The notes beneath the pieces are model-generated. The model searched no databases. It was not told where the DNA came from and worked only from the letters and a program-made list of their open reading frames with translations. This document shows positions 1,213 through 18,685 of a DNA stretch of 20,913 nt, one piece after another (within the stretch, counting starts at the first letter, position 1; each line of letters starts with the position of its first letter). Where the stretch lies: positions 1 to 20,913 of IMG/VR virus record IMGVR_UViG_3300018020_000031. One strand, written 5' to 3'. Position numbers and translations under genes: made by a program. This stretch comes from a virus.

Positions 1213-2415
1213 ATGAGTCTTGATATAAATATTGATACAAAATTAGAAATCGATGATTCACAATTTCCTGAACATATTCCATTAATACCTTTAAATCTTG
1301 AAAAAGAAAAACAAAAGGAAGCTATTAGAAAATTAGCTAATGAAATAAGAAAAAAAACTGGAAAAATTGAGCCAATTATTGTTACTAAAGATGGTATTGC
1401 AAAAAAAGCCAGTGAATTATCAAGTATTGAGAAAGAAGAAGAATTTTTACATTGTGCAACCGATACAATATATTTTATCGAAACATATTTAACTATTTTC
1501 GATCAAACCCAAGGAACTTCTGGTCTTATAGTTCCTTTTAAATTATTCGAATATCAAAAAGATTTAATTAAATCTTATTTAGATCATAGATTTGTAATTG
1601 CAAATAAATATAGACAAGCTGGAATCAGTACAACAACATGTGCATATATTGCATGGTATGTAATGTTTAATCAAAATAGAACTGTTGCTATAGTAGCTGA
1701 TAAACTTGAAACAGCTAGAGATGAATTAATGAATGATGTTATTAATTTTATTGAAGGTTGTCCAAATTTTCTTAGACCAAAAACAGGTAAAGAAACTAAA
1801 GAAAAACTTAAAGATACTCAAAAATTAAAAAGATATGATAATGATAGTGCTTTAGGTGCATTCAGTTCTAAAGGATTGAGAGGTACAACACCAACATTAT
1901 TATTCTGGGATGAAACAGCATGGACTGAAAAAGCAGGTAAATTCTGGACTGCAGCAAAACCTACATTACAAACTGGAGGTAGAGCAATTATGGTAAGTAC
2001 ACCATCTGGATTAGATGAAGTATTTTATTTAACATTTACTGAAGCAAGAAAAAATAAAAACAATTTTGTTGCTGTTGAGCTTTGGTGGTTTAATGATCCT
2101 AGATACAATAAAAATTTAGTTTGGCTTAAAAATAAAGGACATGATACTGAAATAAGATTAGTAGATGCTAATTGGAGTAATGAAGAAAGAATAAAATTAA
2201 TGGACGATGGATGGGAAGCATCAAGTCCTTGGTTTGAAGAACAAATTAGAGAAGCAAATGGCAATTTGAAAATTATTGCTCAAGAATTATTATGTGTTTT
2301 TGGTGAAGCCATTATTACTGTTAAAAATAAAAAAACTGGAATAATTGAAGATATTAAAATATCTGATTTTTACAATAGATTAAAAGAAGAAAGTATTTCT
2401 TGTATGTATTTATAA
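1213..2415 (+). CDS. Terminase large subunit, N-terminal half: ATPase domain fused to an N-terminal split-intein fragment
   Basis: Packaging motor ATPase, gp17-like, which pumps DNA into the prohead through the portal. The first 360 residues are N-extein and residues 361-400 are the N-half of a split intein. ATPase motifs: adenine-binding Q motif around FKLFEYQ (109-115), deviant Walker A KYRQAGISTT (132-141) lacking the usual GK[ST] lysine but with K132 upstream, Walker B LLFWDE (229-234, catalytic E234) and the coupling motif MVSTPSG (260-266). The extein ends AQELL and the intein begins C361-VFGE. The expected continuation CSFLGSGDN is found only in the gene at 3582, so full terminase requires protein trans-splicing. 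A promoter-like motif lies 26 bases upstream. There is no sign of a frameshift error: the stop at 2413 is followed by a complete endonuclease gene. Confidence 0.93.
   Translation: MSLDINIDTKLEIDDSQFPEHIPLIPLNLEKEKQKEAIRKLANEIRKKTGKIEPIIVTKDGIAKKASELSSIEKEEEFLHCATDTIYFIETYLTIFDQTQGTSGLIVPFKLFEYQKDLIKSYLDHRFVIANKYRQAGISTTTCAYIAWYVMFNQNRTVAIVADKLETARDELMNDVINFIEGCPNFLRPKTGKETKEKLKDTQKLKRYDNDSALGAFSSKGLRGTTPTLLFWDETAWTEKAGKFWTAAKPTLQTGGRAIMVSTPSGLDEVFYLTFTEARKNKNNFVAVELWWFNDPRYNKNLVWLKNKGHDTEIRLVDANWSNEERIKLMDDGWEASSPWFEEQIREANGNLKIIAQELLCVFGEAIITVKNKKTGIIEDIKISDFYNRLKEESISCMYL
2293..2412 (+). other. Split intein, N-terminal fragment (TerL intein, about 40 aa)
   Basis: Begins with the nucleophile Cys361 (TGT at 2293-2295) and runs to the stop, 40 residues. 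The sequence CVFGE followed by an IEDIKISDFYNRL segment fits intein block A. About 30 residues look like conserved intein, followed by a divergent ten-residue tail. From memory, the naturally split AceL-TerL intein from metagenomes starts CVYGD and ends its short N-half with a similar IEDLYKRL segment. It sits at the same terminase site. Block B and blocks F/G are missing here and are carried by the C-half at 3582-3905. Confidence 0.9.
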
Positions 2416-2427
2416 TAAACATGTAAT

Positions 2428-3588
2428 ATGAATAAAGATAAATTATTAATTAAAGTAAAAGATATTAATATAAATGATTTTTGTATGATAGGTAGTGTTT
2501 CACATTTTAATAAAATATATCCAAACTTATTGAAATATATAAATGAATATACCATTGATATGCAACTATACTCACCAAATAAGCATTTAAATGCTAAATT
2601 ATTATTTTTACAAAAATACAATGGTAATATTAATAAAATAATAGTTAATAATAAATTAATGATATTTGATACTAAAGTCATGGACTTTAAAGAGGCAAAT
2701 ATTAATTCAGCAAAAAAACAATGGAAAAAATGTAATGATGAATTATCTAAAATTACTGATTTTTATACAAAACAAGAAACTATAAATCTTCTAAAAAATA
2801 ATTATCAAAAATATTATGGTAAATCAGGAAATAGAAAATTATTAAAAGATGATAAAAAACTATATCAAAGTTTATATTATTATACATCAAATTTAGATAA
2901 ATTAAATAAAAATTTAAATAAATTAACATCAAGATTATACATATTAATTAATAATATTGATATTTATTGTCATATACATAAATGTTTAAAATTTTGGAAA
3001 TTTAAAGACGGACAATTTAATATTTGTTGTGGTAAATGTGAACCTAAATATCCATCAATTGAATGGTTTAAAAAAACATATAAGGATAATTGGGAAAAAT
3101 ATTATAATGAAAGAAAATTAACTGTAAGCAACAATAAAACAAATAGTTTAGCATGGTTTAAAATAAAATATGGTGATGATTTAGGTATGACTAATTATAA
3201 TAATTATGTAATAAATAAAATGAATATATTATCTGAATTAAAAGCTAATAAATATTCCAAAATATCTCAAGAATTATTTTGGAATATTTATAATAAATTA
3301 AAACAGAAAGATAATTGTTACTTTTTTGAGCTAAATCAAGAATACGTATTAAGAATTCCTGAAAAATATAATCATAATAATGTGGTAATGATGTTAGATT
3401 TTAAACAAAATAAAAAAATAATAGAATATAATGGTAATTATTGGCATAACAAAGATAAAGATGATATTAGATATTCAATATTACGAGATATGGGTTATGA
3501 AATATTTATAGTTACTTCCGATGAATATAATAGAAATATTAAAAATAATTTAATTATTGATAAATGTATTAATTTTTTAGAATGTTAA
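2428..3588 (+). CDS. Free-standing Vsr-like (EDxHD) homing endonuclease between split-intein halves
   Basis: A 386-aa predicted site-specific endonuclease that would spread this broken-gene arrangement by cutting intein-free terminase alleles. The C-terminal domain carries D324 (MLDF), E333 (IIEYNG) and H340 (YWHNKDKDD-R348), the EDxHD/Vsr-like nuclease signature typified by I-Bth0305I. Upstream is a probable zinc-binding module: C181-HIHKC186 with CCGKC (200-204). After it come two copies of a short WFK-x-x-Y motif (PSIEWFKKTY, SLAWFKIKY) that look like DNA-binding repeats. It starts 12 bases after the N-terminal terminase gene and overlaps the C-terminal gene in ATGTTAA (3582-3588), suggesting coupled translation. 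The layout matches the 'fractured gene' arrangement described for metagenomic phage split inteins (Dassa and colleagues). The nuclease motifs look intact. Confidence 0.87.
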   Translation: MNKDKLLIKVKDININDFCMIGSVSHFNKIYPNLLKYINEYTIDMQLYSPNKHLNAKLLFLQKYNGNINKIIVNNKLMIFDTKVMDFKEANINSAKKQWKKCNDELSKITDFYTKQETINLLKNNYQKYYGKSGNRKLLKDDKKLYQSLYYYTSNLDKLNKNLNKLTSRLYILINNIDIYCHIHKCLKFWKFKDGQFNICCGKCEPKYPSIEWFKKTYKDNWEKYYNERKLTVSNNKTNSLAWFKIKYGDDLGMTNYNNYVINKMNILSELKANKYSKISQELFWNIYNKLKQKDNCYFFELNQEYVLRIPEKYNHNNVVMMLDFKQNKKIIEYNGNYWHNKDKDDIRYSILRDMGYEIFIVTSDEYNRNIKNNLIIDKCINFLEC

Positions 3589-3905
3589 TTAATTTTGATT
3601 ACGAAATATTGAATAGTTCAGGTAATTTCGTGGATTTTTTGGGAATTGAAAAATCGAATAAAGATATTGCATATAAAGTGACATTAGAAAATGATATGTC
3701 AATTGTTGTTAGCAAAGATCATATATTTTTAGCTAACGGAAATGATATGTATGCTAAATCATTAATTCCTAATGTAGCTTATATAACAACAACAGAAGGT
3801 GATGTTTTTGTAAGAAGTGTTGAAAAAATTGAAGGTTGCGATTTTTATGATATTGTGGATTCTCAAGATTGCGAATATTTTGCTAATGGATTTTTAAATC
3901 ATAAC
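3582..3905 (+). other. Split intein, C-terminal fragment (TerL intein, 108 aa)
   Basis: It carries block B as SKDH (S44 to H47; serine replaces the usual threonine of TxxH), block F as FYDIVDSQ followed by CEYFANG, and block G as FLNHN, ending H107-N108. The +1 residue is Cys109 (TGT at 3906). These are canonical C-terminal splicing residues, unlike the other three inteins here, which lack the penultimate His. Since block B is in this fragment, the split lies between blocks A and B. That is an atypical position compared with DnaE-type split inteins. Confidence 0.9.
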
Positions 3906-4874
3906 TGTTCATTTTTGGGATCAGGTGATAATTTTATTGCTGAAGAATTTTTATTAAGAATACAAAATAATGAAATTCAAACACCAATTCGTCAAGAATA
4001 TACAGATAAAAACATGTGGATTTTTGAAGACCCAATTGCTGATGAAAATTATATTATGGCAATAGATGCTTCTCCGGGACATGGTGAAGATAATTCAACT
4101 ATTAATATATTAAAAACAGTTGAAACAATTGAAATTAAAACAATAACAAAAAATGAAAAAACAAAAACTGTTAAAATAAAAAGACATAAAGTAGAACAAG
4201 TGGCTGAATACTATGGTAAAATAGCACCACAAATGCTTGCTGAAATAGCATATCAATATGGAAAAATATATAACAATGCCTATTGTGTTGTTGATATAAC
4301 AGGTGGTTATGGTATTCAAAGTGTTGAAAAATTACTTGAATTTGGATATGAAAATGTTCATTATGCTGAAGTAACTCATAAACCTTCAAGAGATAGATTA
4401 CAAGGATATATTAAAAAAGGATTGAAAACAATGCATGATGGTAATGTTGTAAATGTCGATTTAATTCCCGGATTTTTTATTGGTAATAATAGAGCATCTG
4501 TATTACTTGAATTACAAAGAGCAATACATTTAAAAGATGTAATTATTAGATCAGTTAGATTATTAAGTGAATTAAAAACTTTCGTAACAATTCCGGGTAA
4601 TCGTGTTGCAGATCATAAACGAAGTTTTCATGATGATAGTATCATGGGATTATCAATTGGATTATATGTTTTAAATTTTGATATGGCTAAATTTAAACAA
4701 AGTAAAAGTGTTACTGAAAAAATGTTAAATGCTATTATGACAAATAACGATGTAAAAGATATTAATGCAAGAAGAGAATATAATAATAAACCAAACATAT
4801 CTGTAAATAGTACATCTATGTTAAATCCATATGGAGTAAATGCTTGGTTATTTCAAGGTATTAAGAAAAAATAA
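3582..4874 (+). CDS. Terminase large subunit, C-terminal half: C-terminal split-intein fragment fused to the nuclease domain
   Basis: Residues 1-108 are the intein C-half; residues 109-430 are the C-extein, the RNase H-fold headful nuclease that cuts the concatemer. The extein starts C109-SFLGSGDNF, the expected continuation of AQELL in the upstream gene. Likely metal ligands are D162 (AIDAS), D238 (VVDITGG) and D351/D352 (HDDSIMG), matching the three acidic positions in gp17 nucleases; the middle one is D where T4 has E. Splicing to the first 360 residues gives 682 aa, somewhat longer than T4 gp17 at 610. The start ATG overlaps the stop of the endonuclease gene, and no promoter-like motif precedes it, so it is read from the upstream unit. 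The acidic triad is intact. Confidence 0.93.
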   Translation: MLINFDYEILNSSGNFVDFLGIEKSNKDIAYKVTLENDMSIVVSKDHIFLANGNDMYAKSLIPNVAYITTTEGDVFVRSVEKIEGCDFYDIVDSQDCEYFANGFLNHNCSFLGSGDNFIAEEFLLRIQNNEIQTPIRQEYTDKNMWIFEDPIADENYIMAIDASPGHGEDNSTINILKTVETIEIKTITKNEKTKTVKIKRHKVEQVAEYYGKIAPQMLAEIAYQYGKIYNNAYCVVDITGGYGIQSVEKLLEFGYENVHYAEVTHKPSRDRLQGYIKKGLKTMHDGNVVNVDLIPGFFIGNNRASVLLELQRAIHLKDVIIRSVRLLSELKTFVTIPGNRVADHKRSFHDDSIMGLSIGLYVLNFDMAKFKQSKSVTEKMLNAIMTNNDVKDINARREYNNKPNISVNSTSMLNPYGVNAWLFQGIKKK

Positions 4875-4946: not shown

Positions 4947-7900
4947 ATGGATAAGGAAAAAAATAAATTAACTATATATCAAGAACTTAATCAATTCTTA
5001 AACCTTGATGGTTTTGGTTTTCAAGAACAATCACCGATGTCATCAACTAGTGGATCAGGACTTATATTACCACAAGAAAAAAAGATTATTATTAAAGGTA
5101 ATAGTCCTGAAGAAATACATCGTAAAGGTCTTGAATTACAACAAAAAAAAGAACTTCAAAATAAATTCTTTAGAACAACAGATAGAGGATTCCAAAAAGC
5201 ATTACAATATGAAGCAGCTAGACTTCCTGCATACATTGATTATGAAGGAATGGAATTCTACCCTATTATTTCTAGTGCATTAGATTTGTTTATGGAAGAA
5301 GCCACAGGTATTGGAATAAATGGTAAAATGTTAAATATTTATTCAAATAAAGATAGAATAAAATATTTATTGGATGAATTTTTTTATGATATAGTAAATG
5401 TTAATGTTATACTACCCTTTTGGACTAGAAATCTGCCTGTTAAATATGATAGTATGATACCATTATTAAATGGTGAAACAATTACAATTGAGGAAATATC
5501 AAAAAGATTAAAAGAAAATCCAACTGAAGAAATTTGGACATATTCAATTCAAGATAAAACAAACAAAATTGTCCCAAGTAAAATTATTTGGTGTGATTTA
5601 ACTAGAAAAAATAGTGAAATATTAAAAATTAATTTAGATGATAATAATTTCATTGAAACAGCACCTGATCATGAATTCTTATTAAGAAATGGAACATATA
5701 AAAGAGCTGATGAATTAAAAACAGGCGATAGTTTAATGCCATATTACACATTAACAAGTAAAGAAGATAATAGTAAAATTGTTGGTTATGAAAAAGTTTA
5801 TAATCCATCATCAAATCATTATTGCTATACACATAGAATTGTTTCAAATGAATGTTTAAAAAATTTAGAAGAAGATATTAATGAAAAATATGTAACACAT
5901 CATATTGATTTTAATAAAAAAAACAATCATCCTAAAAATTTAATTAGGATGACAAATACAAATCATTCATTGTATCATTCTAAACTTGCTTCAAGAATTT
6001 TAAAAAGAGCTGATGTTGTTGAAAAAAGAATGAAAGGTATTGATAAATATTTAAGATCAGAAAAAAGAAGAGATAGAATGTCAAAGGAAATGAAAGGTAA
6101 ATATCCAATTTATTTCAATGAATATAATATTAGTTCTTTACATGATGAACACAATATTATACGTAAAAATAGAATGACTGAATTATGGTCAAATGAAGAA
6201 TATAAAAATAAAACAAAAAATTTAATGCAATTATCAATTAATGATGAATGTTTAAATATTATCCAAAATACCATAATTTCTAATAAAAATTATTTAGGTG
6301 CTGGTAAATTAGCATTTTTATTAAAAAACAATAATAATTTTTTAATAAATTTTAACATATCTAATAATCATTTTAATAAGGATTTAAAAAAATCATTAAA
6401 TTCAACAACACTTCGTAAACTCATTTTTAGAAAAACAAATATGATGTATTGTGATTTCTTTTTACAAATAAATCCAAATATAATAACCGAAACAATATTT
6501 AAAAGAGCTAATAATATATCATTATCAAATCAAACAAAAAAAGAAAATATTATAATTAATCATAAAGTTTTATCTATTGAAAAAATTTCAGAAACATATG
6601 ATGTATATTGTATGGAAGTTGTTGGTAAAAATAATGAACAAGATAGACATAATTTTCCTATTTGTGGTAAAAATGAAAATGGTGAATATCAAAGAAATGG
6701 AGTGTTTGTTTCAAATTGTAAATATGGTGATAATTTCGTTTTATTATATGGTGAAAGAAAAAAAGGTATTTCACATGTAAAACAATTAGTTAATTATGAA
6801 ATGGAACGTTTTGAAAGAATTCAAAATGGTAAACCTTTGGTTAAGTTCAAAGAAAGAATGACTGGTGATGAATATAATGTTTTTGAAATAGCTCATTTTA
6901 GATTATTAGGTGATGATAAATATTTACCATATGGAAGTTCTGTATTAAACAAAATTCGTAGAGTTTTCAGACAATTGGTAATGGCTGAAGATGCTATGTT
7001 AACATATCGTATTATTCGTGCTGGTGAAAAAAAGGTATTTAAAATTGACGTTGGAAATATTGATGAAGATGATATTGAGGAATATGTATATAAGGTTGCT
7101 ACTAAGTTTAAAAAAACAGGACAAGTAGCACCTAATGATGGTCAAATAGATTATCGTTTTAATATAATGGGAAATGACGAAGATTATTTTTTACCTGTTA
7201 GAAATGCAAATACATTAACTGGAATTGACACATTACCGGGTGCATGTTTAGCTTTAGATACTAAAATTGAATTACTTGATGGAAGAAGTTTAGAATTAAA
7301 TAAAATTATAAATGAATTTAACACTGGAAAAGAATTATGGTCATATTCGATCAATCCTAAATCAGGATTAATTGTTCCGGGAAAAGTAACATGGGCAGGT
7401 ATTACAAGAAAAAACACTGATGTTCTTAAAATAACATTAGATAATGGTGAAACAATTACTTGTACACCTGATCATAAATTTCCAACAAAATTTAATGGTG
7501 AGAAACAAGCAAAAGATTTATTAGTGGGTGAATCTATGTGGGCATTTAATAAACAATTTAAACAAATTAAAAATCAAGGAAATGAATATGAAATGATTTA
7601 TGATCATTCAATTAATGATTGGGTTTATACACATAGAATGGTATGTGATTATATTAATGAAGTCCCTGATAATTATGTTAGACATCATAAAGATTTTAAT
7701 AGATTTAATAATATGCCTTTAAATATTGAGCCAATCTCAATTAAAGAACATTTACTAAAACACGCTGATCAATCAATGATCGGTGGACTTGCATATAAAG
7801 CAAAATATGAAAATAATTTATCATTTAAAAATGATGTTGATAATAATTTAGCTAAAGGTAGAAATATTTATCATAGTAAATTAATAAACGATAATAATTT

Positions 7901-9569
7901 TAGAAATATTGTTATAAAAAAACAATCTGAATCAGCACATGAATATTTTAATAATCTATCTTTAGAAGAAAAAAATGTTAGAGCTGAAATAAGTATAAAT
8001 AATTCTATTAAATCTAGAGATAAGTCTATTAAAACATTTAATAATAATCCTAATAAAGAAGAAATAATAAGACAAAGAGGATTGTTACATAGTAAAACGA
8101 TGTCATTACCGGAAAATGTTTTAAAACAATCAGAAAAAGCTAAAAATCAATGGAGAAATAGTAATCTAAGCGAAATATTAAAAGAAAAACAAAGTATTAA
8201 ATATTCACATAAATTACTTGATTTATTAATTGAATATTTAAATGAATATGATAGAATTGATATGATTCTTGATAACATTATAAATATTGAAAATTCTGAA
8301 TGGTTAAATGAATTTAATACATTAAATCAAAATAATAAACAATTAAAAAAATTAACTAAAATTACTCGTAATAATATTGATAAATTATTAAAATATTTTG
8401 GTTATTCAAATTGGAATGATTTTAAAAAGAAAGTACCTTGTTATAATCATAAAATTGTTTCTATTGAATATTTAACAGAAAAACAAGATACTGGAACAAT
8501 TACAATTGATGGTAATGAAGAATTACATAATTATCATAATTTTGCATTAACATGTGGCATATTTACCAAGAATTCGAACCTTGATCAAATTCAAGATATT
8601 GAGTATCTGAGAGATAATTTATTTACCGGATTGGGAATACCTAAACCATTTTTAAGTTTTCAAGATGCTGCAGGTGGTGGAAAAAATATGGCACAATATG
8701 ATATTAGGTTTTCAAAAAAAGTAAATCGAATACAACAAGCATTGATTCAAGAACTCAATAAAATGGCAATGATTCATTTATATTTATTGGGTTATACTGG
8801 TGATGATGTTAAAGATTTTACATTAACATTAACAAATCCAAGTACACAACAAGAATTATTAAAAGCTGAGTTACTTAGAGAAAAAGCACAAACATATACT
8901 GAATTAACAAGAGCTGAAGGTGGTATTGCAGCAATGTCACATACTGAAGCACAACGTTTAATCTTTAATAAGAGTGATAGAGAAATTGTTGAAAGTTTGA
9001 AACAACAAAAAATGGAAATGGTTATAAAACAAGAACTTCAAGATTCTCCTGTTATTATTAAGAAATCTGGTTTATTTGCAGATATAGATAAAAGATATGG
9101 TGAACCAGTTGAAGGAATGCCAATAGGTGGCATGACAGGAAATACAGGTCAACCAGCAAGTGCTGGAACACCACCTGAAGCAGGAGGTCAACCAATGGGT
9201 GCTGGAGCACCACCAGCAGGAGGAAATCCACCTGCAATACAAGGTTTACCAAATCAAACGCCAGCTGAATTACCGCCAGTTGAAGGTGAAAGTGTTGTTA
9301 GAAGAAAAAATGTATTAACTGAAGAAGAATATAATAATAAAGTAGAAGCTTTAGTATATGGTAATAATAATAAACCTAATAATAAAAATAAATCATTAAT
9401 TAAAGAAAATGATATAATTAATAACGAATTGAATTATACAGCACAAACAATGATTAATGAAATAGATGTTTTATTAAATGGGACTGAAAGTATTAATACT
9501 AATGGAAATAAAAAAATAACTGACTTTGAAGACATTAATTTCGATGATATAAATGATTTGAAATTATAA
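4947..9569 (+). CDS. Portal protein precursor (gp20-like) containing two HNH inteins
   Basis: The portal forms the dodecameric ring at the head vertex, nucleates head assembly and docks the terminase. The 1540-aa precursor has exteins 1-163, 591-766 and 1210-1540, with inteins at 164-590 and 767-1209. Splicing gives 670 aa against 524 in T4, largely from a long C-terminal extension. Extein signatures: IISSALDLFMEEATG in extein 1; CKYGDNF and YRIIRAGEKKVFKIDVGN in extein 2, closely like the T4 YRI-RAPERRVFYIDVGN region; and, across the second splice point, TLPGA + SNLDQIQDIEYL, as in T4-type TLPG-xNL-EI-D-xYF. The C-terminal part after about residue 1385 is a Gly/Pro/Ala-rich linker (roughly nt 9100-9290) followed by an Asn/Lys-rich acidic tail. 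The promoter-like motif is 31 bases upstream. Joining the exteins as given restores an uninterrupted portal sequence. Confidence 0.94.
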   Translation: MDKEKNKLTIYQELNQFLNLDGFGFQEQSPMSSTSGSGLILPQEKKIIIKGNSPEEIHRKGLELQQKKELQNKFFRTTDRGFQKALQYEAARLPAYIDYEGMEFYPIISSALDLFMEEATGIGINGKMLNIYSNKDRIKYLLDEFFYDIVNVNVILPFWTRNLPVKYDSMIPLLNGETITIEEISKRLKENPTEEIWTYSIQDKTNKIVPSKIIWCDLTRKNSEILKINLDDNNFIETAPDHEFLLRNGTYKRADELKTGDSLMPYYTLTSKEDNSKIVGYEKVYNPSSNHYCYTHRIVSNECLKNLEEDINEKYVTHHIDFNKKNNHPKNLIRMTNTNHSLYHSKLASRILKRADVVEKRMKGIDKYLRSEKRRDRMSKEMKGKYPIYFNEYNISSLHDEHNIIRKNRMTELWSNEEYKNKTKNLMQLSINDECLNIIQNTIISNKNYLGAGKLAFLLKNNNNFLINFNISNNHFNKDLKKSLNSTTLRKLIFRKTNMMYCDFFLQINPNIITETIFKRANNISLSNQTKKENIIINHKVLSIEKISETYDVYCMEVVGKNNEQDRHNFPICGKNENGEYQRNGVFVSNCKYGDNFVLLYGERKKGISHVKQLVNYEMERFERIQNGKPLVKFKERMTGDEYNVFEIAHFRLLGDDKYLPYGSSVLNKIRRVFRQLVMAEDAMLTYRIIRAGEKKVFKIDVGNIDEDDIEEYVYKVATKFKKTGQVAPNDGQIDYRFNIMGNDEDYFLPVRNANTLTGIDTLPGACLALDTKIELLDGRSLELNKIINEFNTGKELWSYSINPKSGLIVPGKVTWAGITRKNTDVLKITLDNGETITCTPDHKFPTKFNGEKQAKDLLVGESMWAFNKQFKQIKNQGNEYEMIYDHSINDWVYTHRMVCDYINEVPDNYVRHHKDFNRFNNMPLNIEPISIKEHLLKHADQSMIGGLAYKAKYENNLSFKNDVDNNLAKGRNIYHSKLINDNNFRNIVIKKQSESAHEYFNNLSLEEKNVRAEISINNSIKSRDKSIKTFNNNPNKEEIIRQRGLLHSKTMSLPENVLKQSEKAKNQWRNSNLSEILKEKQSIKYSHKLLDLLIEYLNEYDRIDMILDNIINIENSEWLNEFNTLNQNNKQLKKLTKITRNNIDKLLKYFGYSNWNDFKKKVPCYNHKIVSIEYLTEKQDTGTITIDGNEELHNYHNFALTCGIFTKNSNLDQIQDIEYLRDNLFTGLGIPKPFLSFQDAAGGGKNMAQYDIRFSKKVNRIQQALIQELNKMAMIHLYLLGYTGDDVKDFTLTLTNPSTQQELLKAELLREKAQTYTELTRAEGGIAAMSHTEAQRLIFNKSDREIVESLKQQKMEMVIKQELQDSPVIIKKSGLFADIDKRYGEPVEGMPIGGMTGNTGQPASAGTPPEAGGQPMGAGAPPAGGNPPAIQGLPNQTPAELPPVEGESVVRRKNVLTEEEYNNKVEALVYGNNNKPNNKNKSLIKENDIINNELNYTAQTMINEIDVLLNGTESINTNGNKKITDFEDINFDDINDLKL
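5436..6716 (+). other. Portal intein 1 (427 aa): HNH-type, begins with proline
   Basis: Residues 164-590 of the precursor, between L163 and C591. The first residue is Pro164 (CCT at 5436), fixed by aligning PVKYDSMI-LLNG with CLALDTKI-LLDG of portal intein 2. The other splicing blocks are present: block B TAPDH, block F VYCMEV with a cysteine at the usual Asp position, then RHNF, and a C terminus VFVSN with Ser before Asn590, followed by +1 Cys. The nuclease is HNH: HHIDFN (318-323) then NNHPKNL and a downstream H, preceded by a YTHRIV module shared with intein 2. Lack of a residue-1 nucleophile rules out the standard first step. Splicing could start from the block F Cys, as in class 3 inteins, but the Trp and Thr of the class 3 WCT triad and its Ser/Thr +1 are not seen. 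Confidence 0.88.
7245..8573 (+). other. Portal intein 2 (443 aa): HNH-type, begins with cysteine
   Basis: Residues 767-1209 of the precursor, between A766 and S1210. It starts C767-LALDTKIELLDG (block A), with block B TCTPDH, block F region TGTITIDG then YHNFALTCG, and a C terminus IFTKN with Lys in place of the penultimate His. The +1 residue is Ser1210. The HNH nuclease has RHHKDFN (912-918) then NNMPLNI and KEHLLKH, all intact. It is paralogous to intein 1 over most of its length: both share VP-K--W---TRKN, a YTHR[IM]V module, the HNH core and a helical tail ending NHK[VI][LV]SIE. The endonuclease tail from about 1085 to 1165 is helical and lysine-rich, probably DNA-binding. Confidence 0.93.
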
Positions 9570-16786: not shown

Positions 16787-18685
16787 ATGAGCAATATATT
16801 ACAAAAAGGTGAAACAGGTTTTGGGATTTTAATTGAGAGTGATTCAGGTTATATTAGCAGAGACTTAAATCCACAATTTCTTACTGAAGGTTTTATTGTT
16901 AAACCAAATGAACCAGTTCTTATTAATTGTATACTTCAGAAATGGGGAGTCAAGAATAAAAATGGTCGTATCTATCCTAAAGATGTATTATTACCACAAG
17001 TTATAGAATATCAAAAATTAGTTGATACTAATTGTGCAATCAGTGAAGCAGATCATCCAGATTGCGTAAAAGCATCTGAATCAATGATTTGTACTAAAAA
17101 TGGCTGGAAATGGTTTAAAGATATTTCTGATGATGAAGAAATATTGACATTAAATAAAGAAACCAATCAAATTGAAATTCAGAAAATAGAGAAAAAAATA
17201 TATATGCCATATGAAGGTAAAATGTATAATTTTTTAGGAGCTAATTTAGAATTAACAGTAACTGAAAATCATCGATTTTTACTTGAGGATAAAAATGGTA
17301 ATAGAGAATATTTTTATGCTAAGGACATTTATAATAATGTAAATAATATTTTATCATCATCTAAATATAAATTATTAAAAACTGGCGATTGGATTGGAAT
17401 AAATTCTGAATTTTTTACGTTAAAAGGTATTAATAATTTTCAAACAAGAACAAAACATGAATTAATTGAAAAATATAAACAATCTATAAATATAAAATCA
17501 GAAGATTGGTTTGCATTTATTGGAATTTATTTAGCTGAAGGGCATTGTTGTGGAAGTAAATCGAATCAATATAAATTAAATGGATTTAATGTCGTTATTA
17601 CACAAAAAAATATCGAAAAAAAGAAATTAATTGTAAACTTATTAAATAAATTACCTTTTAAATATTGGATATCTGAACATGACGATGGAAAATGTCAATA
17701 TCATATTACTGATGCTAGATTATATGAATATCTATATTATTTAGGTGATTCATATAATAAATATATTCCAATTGAATTAAAACAATATTCTACTAAATTA
17801 TTAAAAATAATGTTTGATTGGTTTATGTTAGGTGACGGAAGAAATGTTAAATCAAAACATATAACATGGTCTAATAAACAATCAGTTTTTTCGATTTCAA
17901 AACAACTAATTGAAGATTTGCATGAAATCTTAATTAAAATAGGTGGTTGTGGTAATATTACCACATATCAACCAAAAAATAGAAATATTATTGATAAAAA
18001 AATAATAAAAAAAGAATTAATTACATCATCTGGTGATATTGAATATATGAATGAAACAATATCAACAAATAGATTAATTAAATCAGAAAATAGTCATATT
18101 CAATATAATTTAAATATATCTAAAACTAAAAATATTTATTTAGATAAAAGATTTATTAAAATAAAAGAAATTGATTTTAATGATGAAATTGCCTGTGTTA
18201 GAGTTAAAAACGGAAATTTTTTAATTAAAGTAAACGGTAAATCACATTGGACAGGTAATTCTAGTGTTGTATCATTACAAAACTTATCACATATGATAAC
18301 AAAAATGTGGTGGGGAACTGGTGATCAGGAAAATGTTCTATATGGTGAATTAAAAATATTAGTAACTAGAGGATATGCTAACATAGGTATTTGTTCAGTA
18401 ATTGGTGATAAAATTGCATTCTATCTTGAAAATAAAATAAAATTAGGAATATCATCCAGAGGTGTTGGAACATTAAAAGAAATTAATGGTGAAAATTATG
18501 TACAAAATGATTTTGAATTAATCGGTTTTGACTTAGTTTCATCTCCAAGTACACCCGGAGCATATTTATTCCCAATAAAAAATGGTGAAAAAGGATTTGC
18601 TGAAAATTATATAAATAAAAATGGCATCTATCTTAAAGAAGAGAATAACAAGTTATTAAGTGCAATTGATTATTTTTTATTGTAA
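16787..18685 (+). CDS. Prohead maturation protease precursor (gp21-like) with a LAGLIDADG intein
   Basis: A serine protease that processes scaffold and head proteins inside the prohead. The precursor is 632 aa with exteins 1-92 and 492-632, giving 233 aa after splicing (T4 gp21 is 212). Extein 1 has the family's WGVKNKNGRIYPKDVL region and ends SEADHPD with the likely catalytic His90. Extein 2 starts SSVVSLQNLSHMITKMWW and contains GISSRGVGTL, with the catalytic serine at 556 or 557, then a FELIGFDLVSSPSTPGAYL segment typical of the family. The intein at 93-491 is inserted two residues after the catalytic His, so unspliced precursor would be inactive. The gene lies directly upstream of scaffold and major capsid genes, the T4 21-22-23 order. 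A promoter-like motif is 25 bases upstream. Confidence 0.93.
   Translation: MSNILQKGETGFGILIESDSGYISRDLNPQFLTEGFIVKPNEPVLINCILQKWGVKNKNGRIYPKDVLLPQVIEYQKLVDTNCAISEADHPDCVKASESMICTKNGWKWFKDISDDEEILTLNKETNQIEIQKIEKKIYMPYEGKMYNFLGANLELTVTENHRFLLEDKNGNREYFYAKDIYNNVNNILSSSKYKLLKTGDWIGINSEFFTLKGINNFQTRTKHELIEKYKQSINIKSEDWFAFIGIYLAEGHCCGSKSNQYKLNGFNVVITQKNIEKKKLIVNLLNKLPFKYWISEHDDGKCQYHITDARLYEYLYYLGDSYNKYIPIELKQYSTKLLKIMFDWFMLGDGRNVKSKHITWSNKQSVFSISKQLIEDLHEILIKIGGCGNITTYQPKNRNIIDKKIIKKELITSSGDIEYMNETISTNRLIKSENSHIQYNLNISKTKNIYLDKRFIKIKEIDFNDEIACVRVKNGNFLIKVNGKSHWTGNSSVVSLQNLSHMITKMWWGTGDQENVLYGELKILVTRGYANIGICSVIGDKIAFYLENKIKLGISSRGVGTLKEINGENYVQNDFELIGFDLVSSPSTPGAYLFPIKNGEKGFAENYINKNGIYLKEENNKLLSAIDYFLL
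17063..18259 (+). other. Prohead protease intein (399 aa), LAGLIDADG type
   Basis: Residues 93-491 of the precursor, between D92 and S492. It begins C93-VKASESMICTKNGW (block A), with block B as TVTENHRF, block F as ACVRVKNGNF and the C terminus KSHWTGN. Gly490 stands where His is usual, with +1 Ser; WTGN endings are familiar in phage inteins. Two LAGLIDADG motifs, FIGIYLAEGH (acidic E251) and FDWFMLGDG (acidic D350), are about 100 residues apart, as in single-chain LAGLIDADG enzymes. Both acidic residues are present, so the endonuclease may be active. It is unrelated to the HNH inteins in the portal beyond the splicing blocks. Confidence 0.93.

What the first reader, a model, noticed from the sequence alone, without database searches (positions are those of the whole stretch)
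1213..4874. Fractured terminase gene: trans-splicing intein split near its N terminus with an EDxHD endonuclease gene in the break
The ATPase half ends in a 40-residue intein start (C361) and the nuclease half begins with a 108-residue intein end (H107-N108, +1 Cys109). A complete endonuclease gene fills the 12-base to -7-base interval between them. Active packaging motor would need two polypeptides to meet and splice. From memory, short-N-half TerL inteins (AceL-TerL) and 'fractured genes' with this nuclease family are known mainly from metagenomes, so a genomic example with all parts together and intact motifs is valuable. The short N-half also makes it a candidate for fast trans-splicing.
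Basis: partly seen in the sequence, partly recalled or inferred. Interest (0 to 1): 0.9.

Follow-up and report, generated by a model that had tools for sequence, protein, structure and literature searches.

The report
Terminase gene split by mobile intein
In this virus fragment the gene for the DNA-packaging motor is broken into two genes whose protein halves carry the two pieces of a self-splicing protein tag (a split intein), with a homing endonuclease gene in the break; relatives show that the element moves between phages, but the arrangement is a new member of a known kind, already present in cultured phages.

Summary
TerL ATPase half + 40-aa IntN: 1213-2415. EDxHD endonuclease (386 aa): 2428-3588. 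108-aa IntC + TerL nuclease half: 3582-4874. Comparison with 39 intein-free TerL genes gives the exact insertion point, and an intact relative is 682 aa, the predicted spliced length. Cys1, block B His, His107-Asn108 and Cys+1 are intact and conserved. Profiles match the Cat-TerL and gp41-1 inteins; a contiguous relative is predicted to fold as an intein. The endonuclease matches I-Bth0305I by profile and fold.

About 20 further fractured relatives were found, plus empty alleles, contiguous mini-inteins, alleles with IntN fused to the endonuclease, and two with a decayed endonuclease. In one pair the whole 1,611-bp element differs by one base between TerL genes about 80% identical, with abrupt edges 15-17 bp from the site: strong evidence of recent homing.

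New member of a known kind; splicing is inferred, not shown.

The parts
1213..2292 (+). TerL N-extein (ATPase half, 360 aa)
   Evidence: Pfam Terminase_6N E=5e-9; PHROG terminase E=9e-35; T4 gp17 structures E=1.6e-22; ends exactly where intein-free alleles continue
2293..2412 (+). IntN, 40 aa beginning with Cys1; about the first 30 aa are intein, the last about 10 a tail
   Evidence: alignment of 17 loci with Cys1, and the residues I and Y of block N2, invariant; followed by stop codons TAA TAA at 2413-2418
2428..3588 (+). free-standing EDxHD (Vsr-like) homing endonuclease, 386 aa
   Evidence: E305, D324, E333, H340 invariant and D345 nearly invariant in 14 homologues; profile hit to I-Bth0305I 3r3p E=9.5e-4; AF2 model best PDB match 3r3p, prob 1.00, E=0.063
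3340..3462 (+). endonuclease catalytic residues E305 ... D345 (codons 3340-3342 ... 3460-3462)
   Evidence: positions computed from the alignment
3582..3588 (+). ATGTTAA overlap of the endonuclease stop with the IntC start; candidate translational coupling
   Evidence: start-stop overlap of 4, 7 or 10 nt in all 22 loci checked, including two with decayed endonuclease; no Shine-Dalgarno-like sequence
3582..3905 (+). IntC, 108 aa, with block B His47 and C-terminal His107-Asn108
   Evidence: 18-locus alignment; Cat-TerL IntC 6dsl E=2.7e-13 and gp41-1 intein E=1.4e-15 by profile
3906..4874 (+). TerL C-extein (nuclease half, 322 aa), beginning with Cys+1
   Evidence: intein-free homologues 73-80% identical beginning at this Cys; weak match to the T4-like gp17 nuclease domain

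Best explanation
A mobile fractured-gene element sits in the large terminase gene at the boundary between ATPase and nuclease domains. Three polypeptides are made: ATPase-IntN, a homing endonuclease, and IntC-nuclease. IntN and IntC meet, complete the HINT fold and splice in trans (Cys1 acyl shift, attack by Cys+1, Asn108 cyclisation), leaving a seamless 682-aa TerL. The endonuclease cuts intein-free terL alleles at the insertion site during co-infection, and repair copies the whole IntN-endonuclease-IntC block. Shown here: the anatomy, conservation of the splicing and nuclease motifs, purifying selection, exact empty-site alleles, patchy distribution and transfer of the element as a unit among relatives. 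Inferred: splicing, DNA cleavage, and coupling of IntC translation to termination of the endonuclease gene.
For: Exact coordinates. 39 empty, 3 contiguous-intein and 21 split alleles among 63 distinct TerL sequences. Splice residues invariant. Intein profile matches. AF2 model of the contiguous relative L017, pLDDT 92, pTM 0.84, with its low-confidence loop (about residues 31-40) at the place of the break, and matches to gp41-1 and VidaL inteins. Endonuclease family. Cousin endonucleases, about 40% identical over the C-terminal 146 aa, sit inside fractured DnaB-type helicase split inteins. L020/L085: 1 mismatch in 1,611 bp inside the element, exteins about 80%, edges at -15 and +17 bp. Single TerL in 13 longer genomes.
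Against: No experimental proof of splicing or cleavage. The window's own genome is incomplete. L085 could be a chimeric assembly, although L020 comes from another metagenome and further pairs (L007/L019, L020/L021) show the same trend more weakly. The endonuclease structure match is confined to the catalytic domain and its Foldseek E-value is only 0.063.
Confidence: 0.9

Rival explanations
1. Genes in pieces without splicing: the two TerL halves work as a non-covalent two-subunit motor, as reported for the split Aeh1 ribonucleotide reductase, and the intein remnants are inert.
For: The break lies between two domains that fold separately in gp17 (and general knowledge of gp17). A split gene that works without splicing has a precedent (Friedrich et al., cited in PMC10448857).
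Against: Cys1, block B His, His-Asn and Cys+1 are invariant in all split loci aligned although IntN is only about 46-62% identical to the window's; inert remnants should decay. Contiguous intein alleles exist at the same site.
Confidence: 0.05
2. RNA-level joining: the break is a group I or group II intron carrying the endonuclease.
For: EDxHD endonucleases are also known from group I introns (PMC3943268). ICP1 terL is RNA-spliced (PMC10448857).
Against: No Rfam intron match even at E up to 5. The endonuclease ORF fills the interval (12 nt before it, -7 nt after it), leaving no room for a ribozyme core. Intein halves flank the break exactly, and the L013 remnant is only 143 bp.
Confidence: 0.02
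3. Recoding: stop readthrough plus a -1 frameshift at the end of the endonuclease gene makes one long precursor that splices in cis.
For: In the window the heptamer TTTTTTA lies in frame just before the overlap, IntC is in the -1 frame, and in about half of the relatives IntN is fused in frame to the endonuclease.
Against: The heptamer TTTTTTA is present in only 7 of 22 loci while the IntC ATG is present in 22 of 22. In the window two consecutive TAA stops separate IntN from the endonuclease.
Confidence: 0.04
4. Dead or artefactual locus: a broken pseudogene or an assembly error.
For: Metagenomic assembly; the window is a fragment.
Against: The same architecture recurs in about 20 other contigs and in cultured phages. 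All reading frames are under purifying selection.
Confidence: 0.01

Closest known systems
Fractured genes (Dassa et al. 2009, Nucleic Acids Res 37:2560)
   Same: Essential enzyme gene broken by a split intein with a homing endonuclease gene, often Vsr-like EDxHD, in the break. Cousin endonucleases were found here in fractured helicase loci.
   Different: Here the gene is the packaging motor TerL and the break is near the intein N terminus. The 2009 paper was not held; its content is from memory and from papers that cite it.
Atypically split TerL inteins AceL-TerL, GOS-TerL and consensus Cat-TerL
   Same: TerL host, short IntN (25, 37 and 30 aa there, 40 here), IntC of about 104-108 aa, Cys+1 (PMC11766414). 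Profile match to Cat IntC E=2.7e-13.
   Different: Only distantly similar in sequence (single-sequence match to Cat IntC E=0.13). Cys1 here against Ser1 in GOS-TerL.
Aeromonas phage PX29 genes 17A/17B and other isolates (Providencia PSTRCR_127, Serratia 92A1, Vibrio Va1, EniLVp02, VP-1, 1.244.A)
   Same: TerL fractured by a split intein at the same junction, with a short IntN.
   Different: Endonuclease is GIY-YIG in PX29 (annotation) and, by resemblance, in PSTRCR_127, 92A1, VP-1 and 1.244.A; EDxHD-related in Va1; absent in EniLVp02. It is fused to the C half in PX29 and Va1, fused to the N half in VP-1 and 1.244.A, free in PSTRCR_127 and 92A1.
Homing endonuclease I-Bth0305I (EDxHD family, PDB 3r3p)
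   Same: Catalytic domain matches by profile and fold.
   Different: I-Bth0305I is annotated as a mobile-intron protein; only its catalytic domain is in the PDB match, and nothing was found for the N-terminal part of the window's enzyme.

Membership tests
Fractured gene with split intein | Host gene broken into two ORFs ending and beginning with complementary intein parts | tested here: met
Fractured gene with split intein | Free-standing homing endonuclease ORF in the break | tested here: met
Fractured gene with split intein | Trans-splicing restores the host protein | not testable with these tools
   Motifs intact and predicted product length equals an intein-free allele (682 aa); no wet test possible
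Atypically split TerL intein (AceL/GOS/Cat type) | Short IntN (about 25-40 aa) and IntC of about 100 aa in TerL | tested here: met
Atypically split TerL intein (AceL/GOS/Cat type) | Same insertion point in TerL as AceL-TerL | tested here: inconclusive
   The native exteins of AceL-TerL were not available in the tools; from memory its C-extein starts CEF, which would fit CSF here
Class 1 intein | Cys/Ser at 1, block B His, penultimate His, terminal Asn, Cys/Ser/Thr at +1 | tested here: met
   Cys1, His47, His107, Asn108 and Cys+1 invariant
EDxHD (Vsr-like) homing endonuclease | Conserved E...D...x...H...D catalytic residues and I-Bth0305I-like catalytic fold | tested here: met
   assignment of these residues to the family motif is from the alignment and general knowledge of Vsr-like enzymes
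EDxHD (Vsr-like) homing endonuclease | Site-specific cleavage of intein-free alleles | not testable with these tools
   Indirect only: transfer of the element as a unit in relatives
Group I / group II intron | Ribozyme core in the interval | tested here: not met
   interval filled by the ORF

The most novel reading that the evidence does not exclude
The TerL loci preserve a whole life cycle of a fractured gene: empty site, contiguous mini-intein, endonuclease lodged in a disordered loop of the intein (fused to the N half, fused to the C half, or free), endonuclease transfer independent of the intein, and endonuclease death that leaves a permanently split essential gene. Production of the nuclease half of the packaging motor may be translationally coupled to the endonuclease gene, so that packaging depends on expression of the parasite.
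Probability: 0.35. Interest if true: 0.7.

Novelty: new member of a known kind. Interest (0 to 1): 0.5.

Why it matters
Fractured genes were proposed as a missing link in the origin of split inteins. This TerL family supplies the intermediates side by side, with intein-free sisters, a case of near-identical element transfer, and cultured phages in which trans-splicing of a packaging motor can be tested directly. It also offers many new short-IntN split inteins for protein labelling, and shows that such TerL genes are easily misannotated (a truncated terminase plus hypothetical proteins).

Tried and rejected
Group I/II intron in the break: no Rfam match. Programmed -1 frameshift: slippery site not conserved. 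Second intact TerL: none found in 13 longer relatives. Idea that the contiguous intein of L017 is a re-fused split intein: the intein tree does not resolve it. Single-sequence PDB search with the endonuclease gave only chance hits; the profile was needed. DNA-level match of the element to phage records: none. Papers: Dassa 2009, Bachmann & Mootz 2015 and Stevens 2018 are not held; a text search for terminase large subunit + intein + trans-splicing found nothing. The alignment with separate IntN rows was badly aligned and was replaced by A5.

Full report
Observation. ATPase half 1213-2415 ends with AQELL|CVFGEAIITVKNKKTGIIEDIKISDFYNRLKEESISCMYL. The endonuclease ORF is 2428-3588. The nuclease half 3582-4874 starts with a 108-aa IntC ending ..FLNHN|CSFLGSGDNF. 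ATPase half and endonuclease share a frame but are separated by TAA TAA; IntC is in the -1 frame and its ATG overlaps the endonuclease stop (ATGTTAA).

Identity of the parts. The N-extein matches T4 gp17 ATPase structures and Terminase_6N; the C-extein matches the gp17-type nuclease only weakly. Aligning an intein-free relative to gp17 puts the insertion at QEHT|AAF of gp17, about the ATPase-nuclease boundary. IntC matches the gp41-1 intein (E=1.4e-15) and the consensus Cat-TerL IntC 6dsl (E=2.7e-13) by profile. A contiguous relative (L017 intein) is predicted with high confidence as an intein fold (pLDDT 92, pTM 0.84); its low-confidence stretch is about residues 31-40, where the fractured relatives break, and it matches gp41-1 and VidaL inteins. 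The endonuclease has E305, D324, E333, H340 and D345 invariant or nearly so, and hits I-Bth0305I by profile and as best fold match.

Relatives. Three viral-contig scans gave, among 63 distinct TerL sequences, 39 intein-free, 3 contiguous mini-intein, 10 three-piece split, 10 split with IntN fused in frame to the endonuclease (one of them, L175, with a decayed endonuclease) and 1 split with only an endonuclease remnant, L013. The L013 remnant is an ORF of about 46 codons that keeps the first and last parts of the endonuclease and the overlap with the IntC start. L175 has a truncated endonuclease. The overlap of the IntC ATG with the upstream stop (4, 7 or 10 nt) holds in all 22 loci examined, with no Shine-Dalgarno-like sequence, which suggests reinitiation coupling (inference). 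More distant TerL families (30-40% identity) have the same arrangement at the same junction. Cousin endonucleases lie inside fractured DnaB-type helicase split inteins.

Mobility. On the extein tree the intein is patchy, with at least 6 forced changes and 13 by parsimony for the empty/occupied label. L009 and L022 have sister exteins but unlike inteins, one split and one contiguous. L020 and L085, from different metagenomes, differ by 1 base in the 1,611-bp element while their exteins are about 80% identical; the identity tract ends within 15 bp upstream and 17 bp downstream of the insertion. In L097/L010 the endonuclease gene is 91% identical but IntN 73% and IntC 79%, like the exteins, which suggests that the endonuclease moved between existing split inteins. 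The window itself has no such near pair, so recent homing is shown for its kin, not for it.

Function. The window compared with L084 shows purifying selection in IntN (dN/dS 0.30), endonuclease (0.31), IntC (0.22) and exteins (0.19-0.23). No second TerL was found in 10 related contigs of 44-349 kb and 3 isolates; TerL is essential in tailed phages (established knowledge), so the halves must reunite or act together. Conservation of all splice residues favours splicing over non-covalent assembly.

What is known. EDxHD homing endonucleases and atypically split TerL inteins are both described (PMC11766414; PMC3943268); fractured genes were described by Dassa 2009 (not held, from memory and citing papers). 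The window is itself a metagenomic fragment of a T4-like phage (gp17, gp20, gp21 and gp23 homologues), perhaps of Bacteroidota (an intein-free homologue lies in a Bacteroidota MAG).

Verdict. Real, well-formed, very probably functional; a new member of a known kind. Its value is the allelic series around it and the testability in cultured relatives.

Noticed in passing
window 4947-9569, portal aa about 164-589: Contiguous intein with Pro as first residue (WTRNL|PVKYDSMIPLL ... VSN|CKYGDNF) and a block F Cys (VYCMEV), features that, from memory, recall class 3 inteins; L010, L028 and L060 share the Pro start and many relatives have the empty site.
   Followed up: partly
window 4947-9569, portal aa about 766-1209: Second contiguous intein in the same portal gene (GA|CLALDTKIEL ... 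FTKN|SNLD); weak HNH matches in this protein.
   Followed up: no
window 16787-18685, aa about 93-490: Prohead protease (gp21-like) with a contiguous intein and a weak LAGLIDADG match; this fragment thus holds four inteins in head and packaging genes.
   Followed up: no
L011, L017, L028, L175: Second, contiguous TerL intein (LAGLIDADG-like by eye) between IMVS and TPSG, extein residue about 262, so some TerL genes carry two inteins.
   Followed up: partly
L187 (Serratia phage 92A1), L158 (Providencia PSTRCR_127), L189 (Vibrio EniLVp02): Parts of the fractured TerL are annotated as hypothetical proteins in these isolate records.
   Followed up: yes
L122-L153: DnaB-type helicase genes fractured by split inteins with related EDxHD endonucleases; a neighbouring NrdB-like gene in L126/L128 also seems to hold an intein.
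   Followed up: partly
L154 1-2781: EDxHD-type endonuclease ORF just upstream of a TerL part that begins with intein-like sequence at another TerL site (..SHN|TTTCGY, near Walker A).
   Followed up: no
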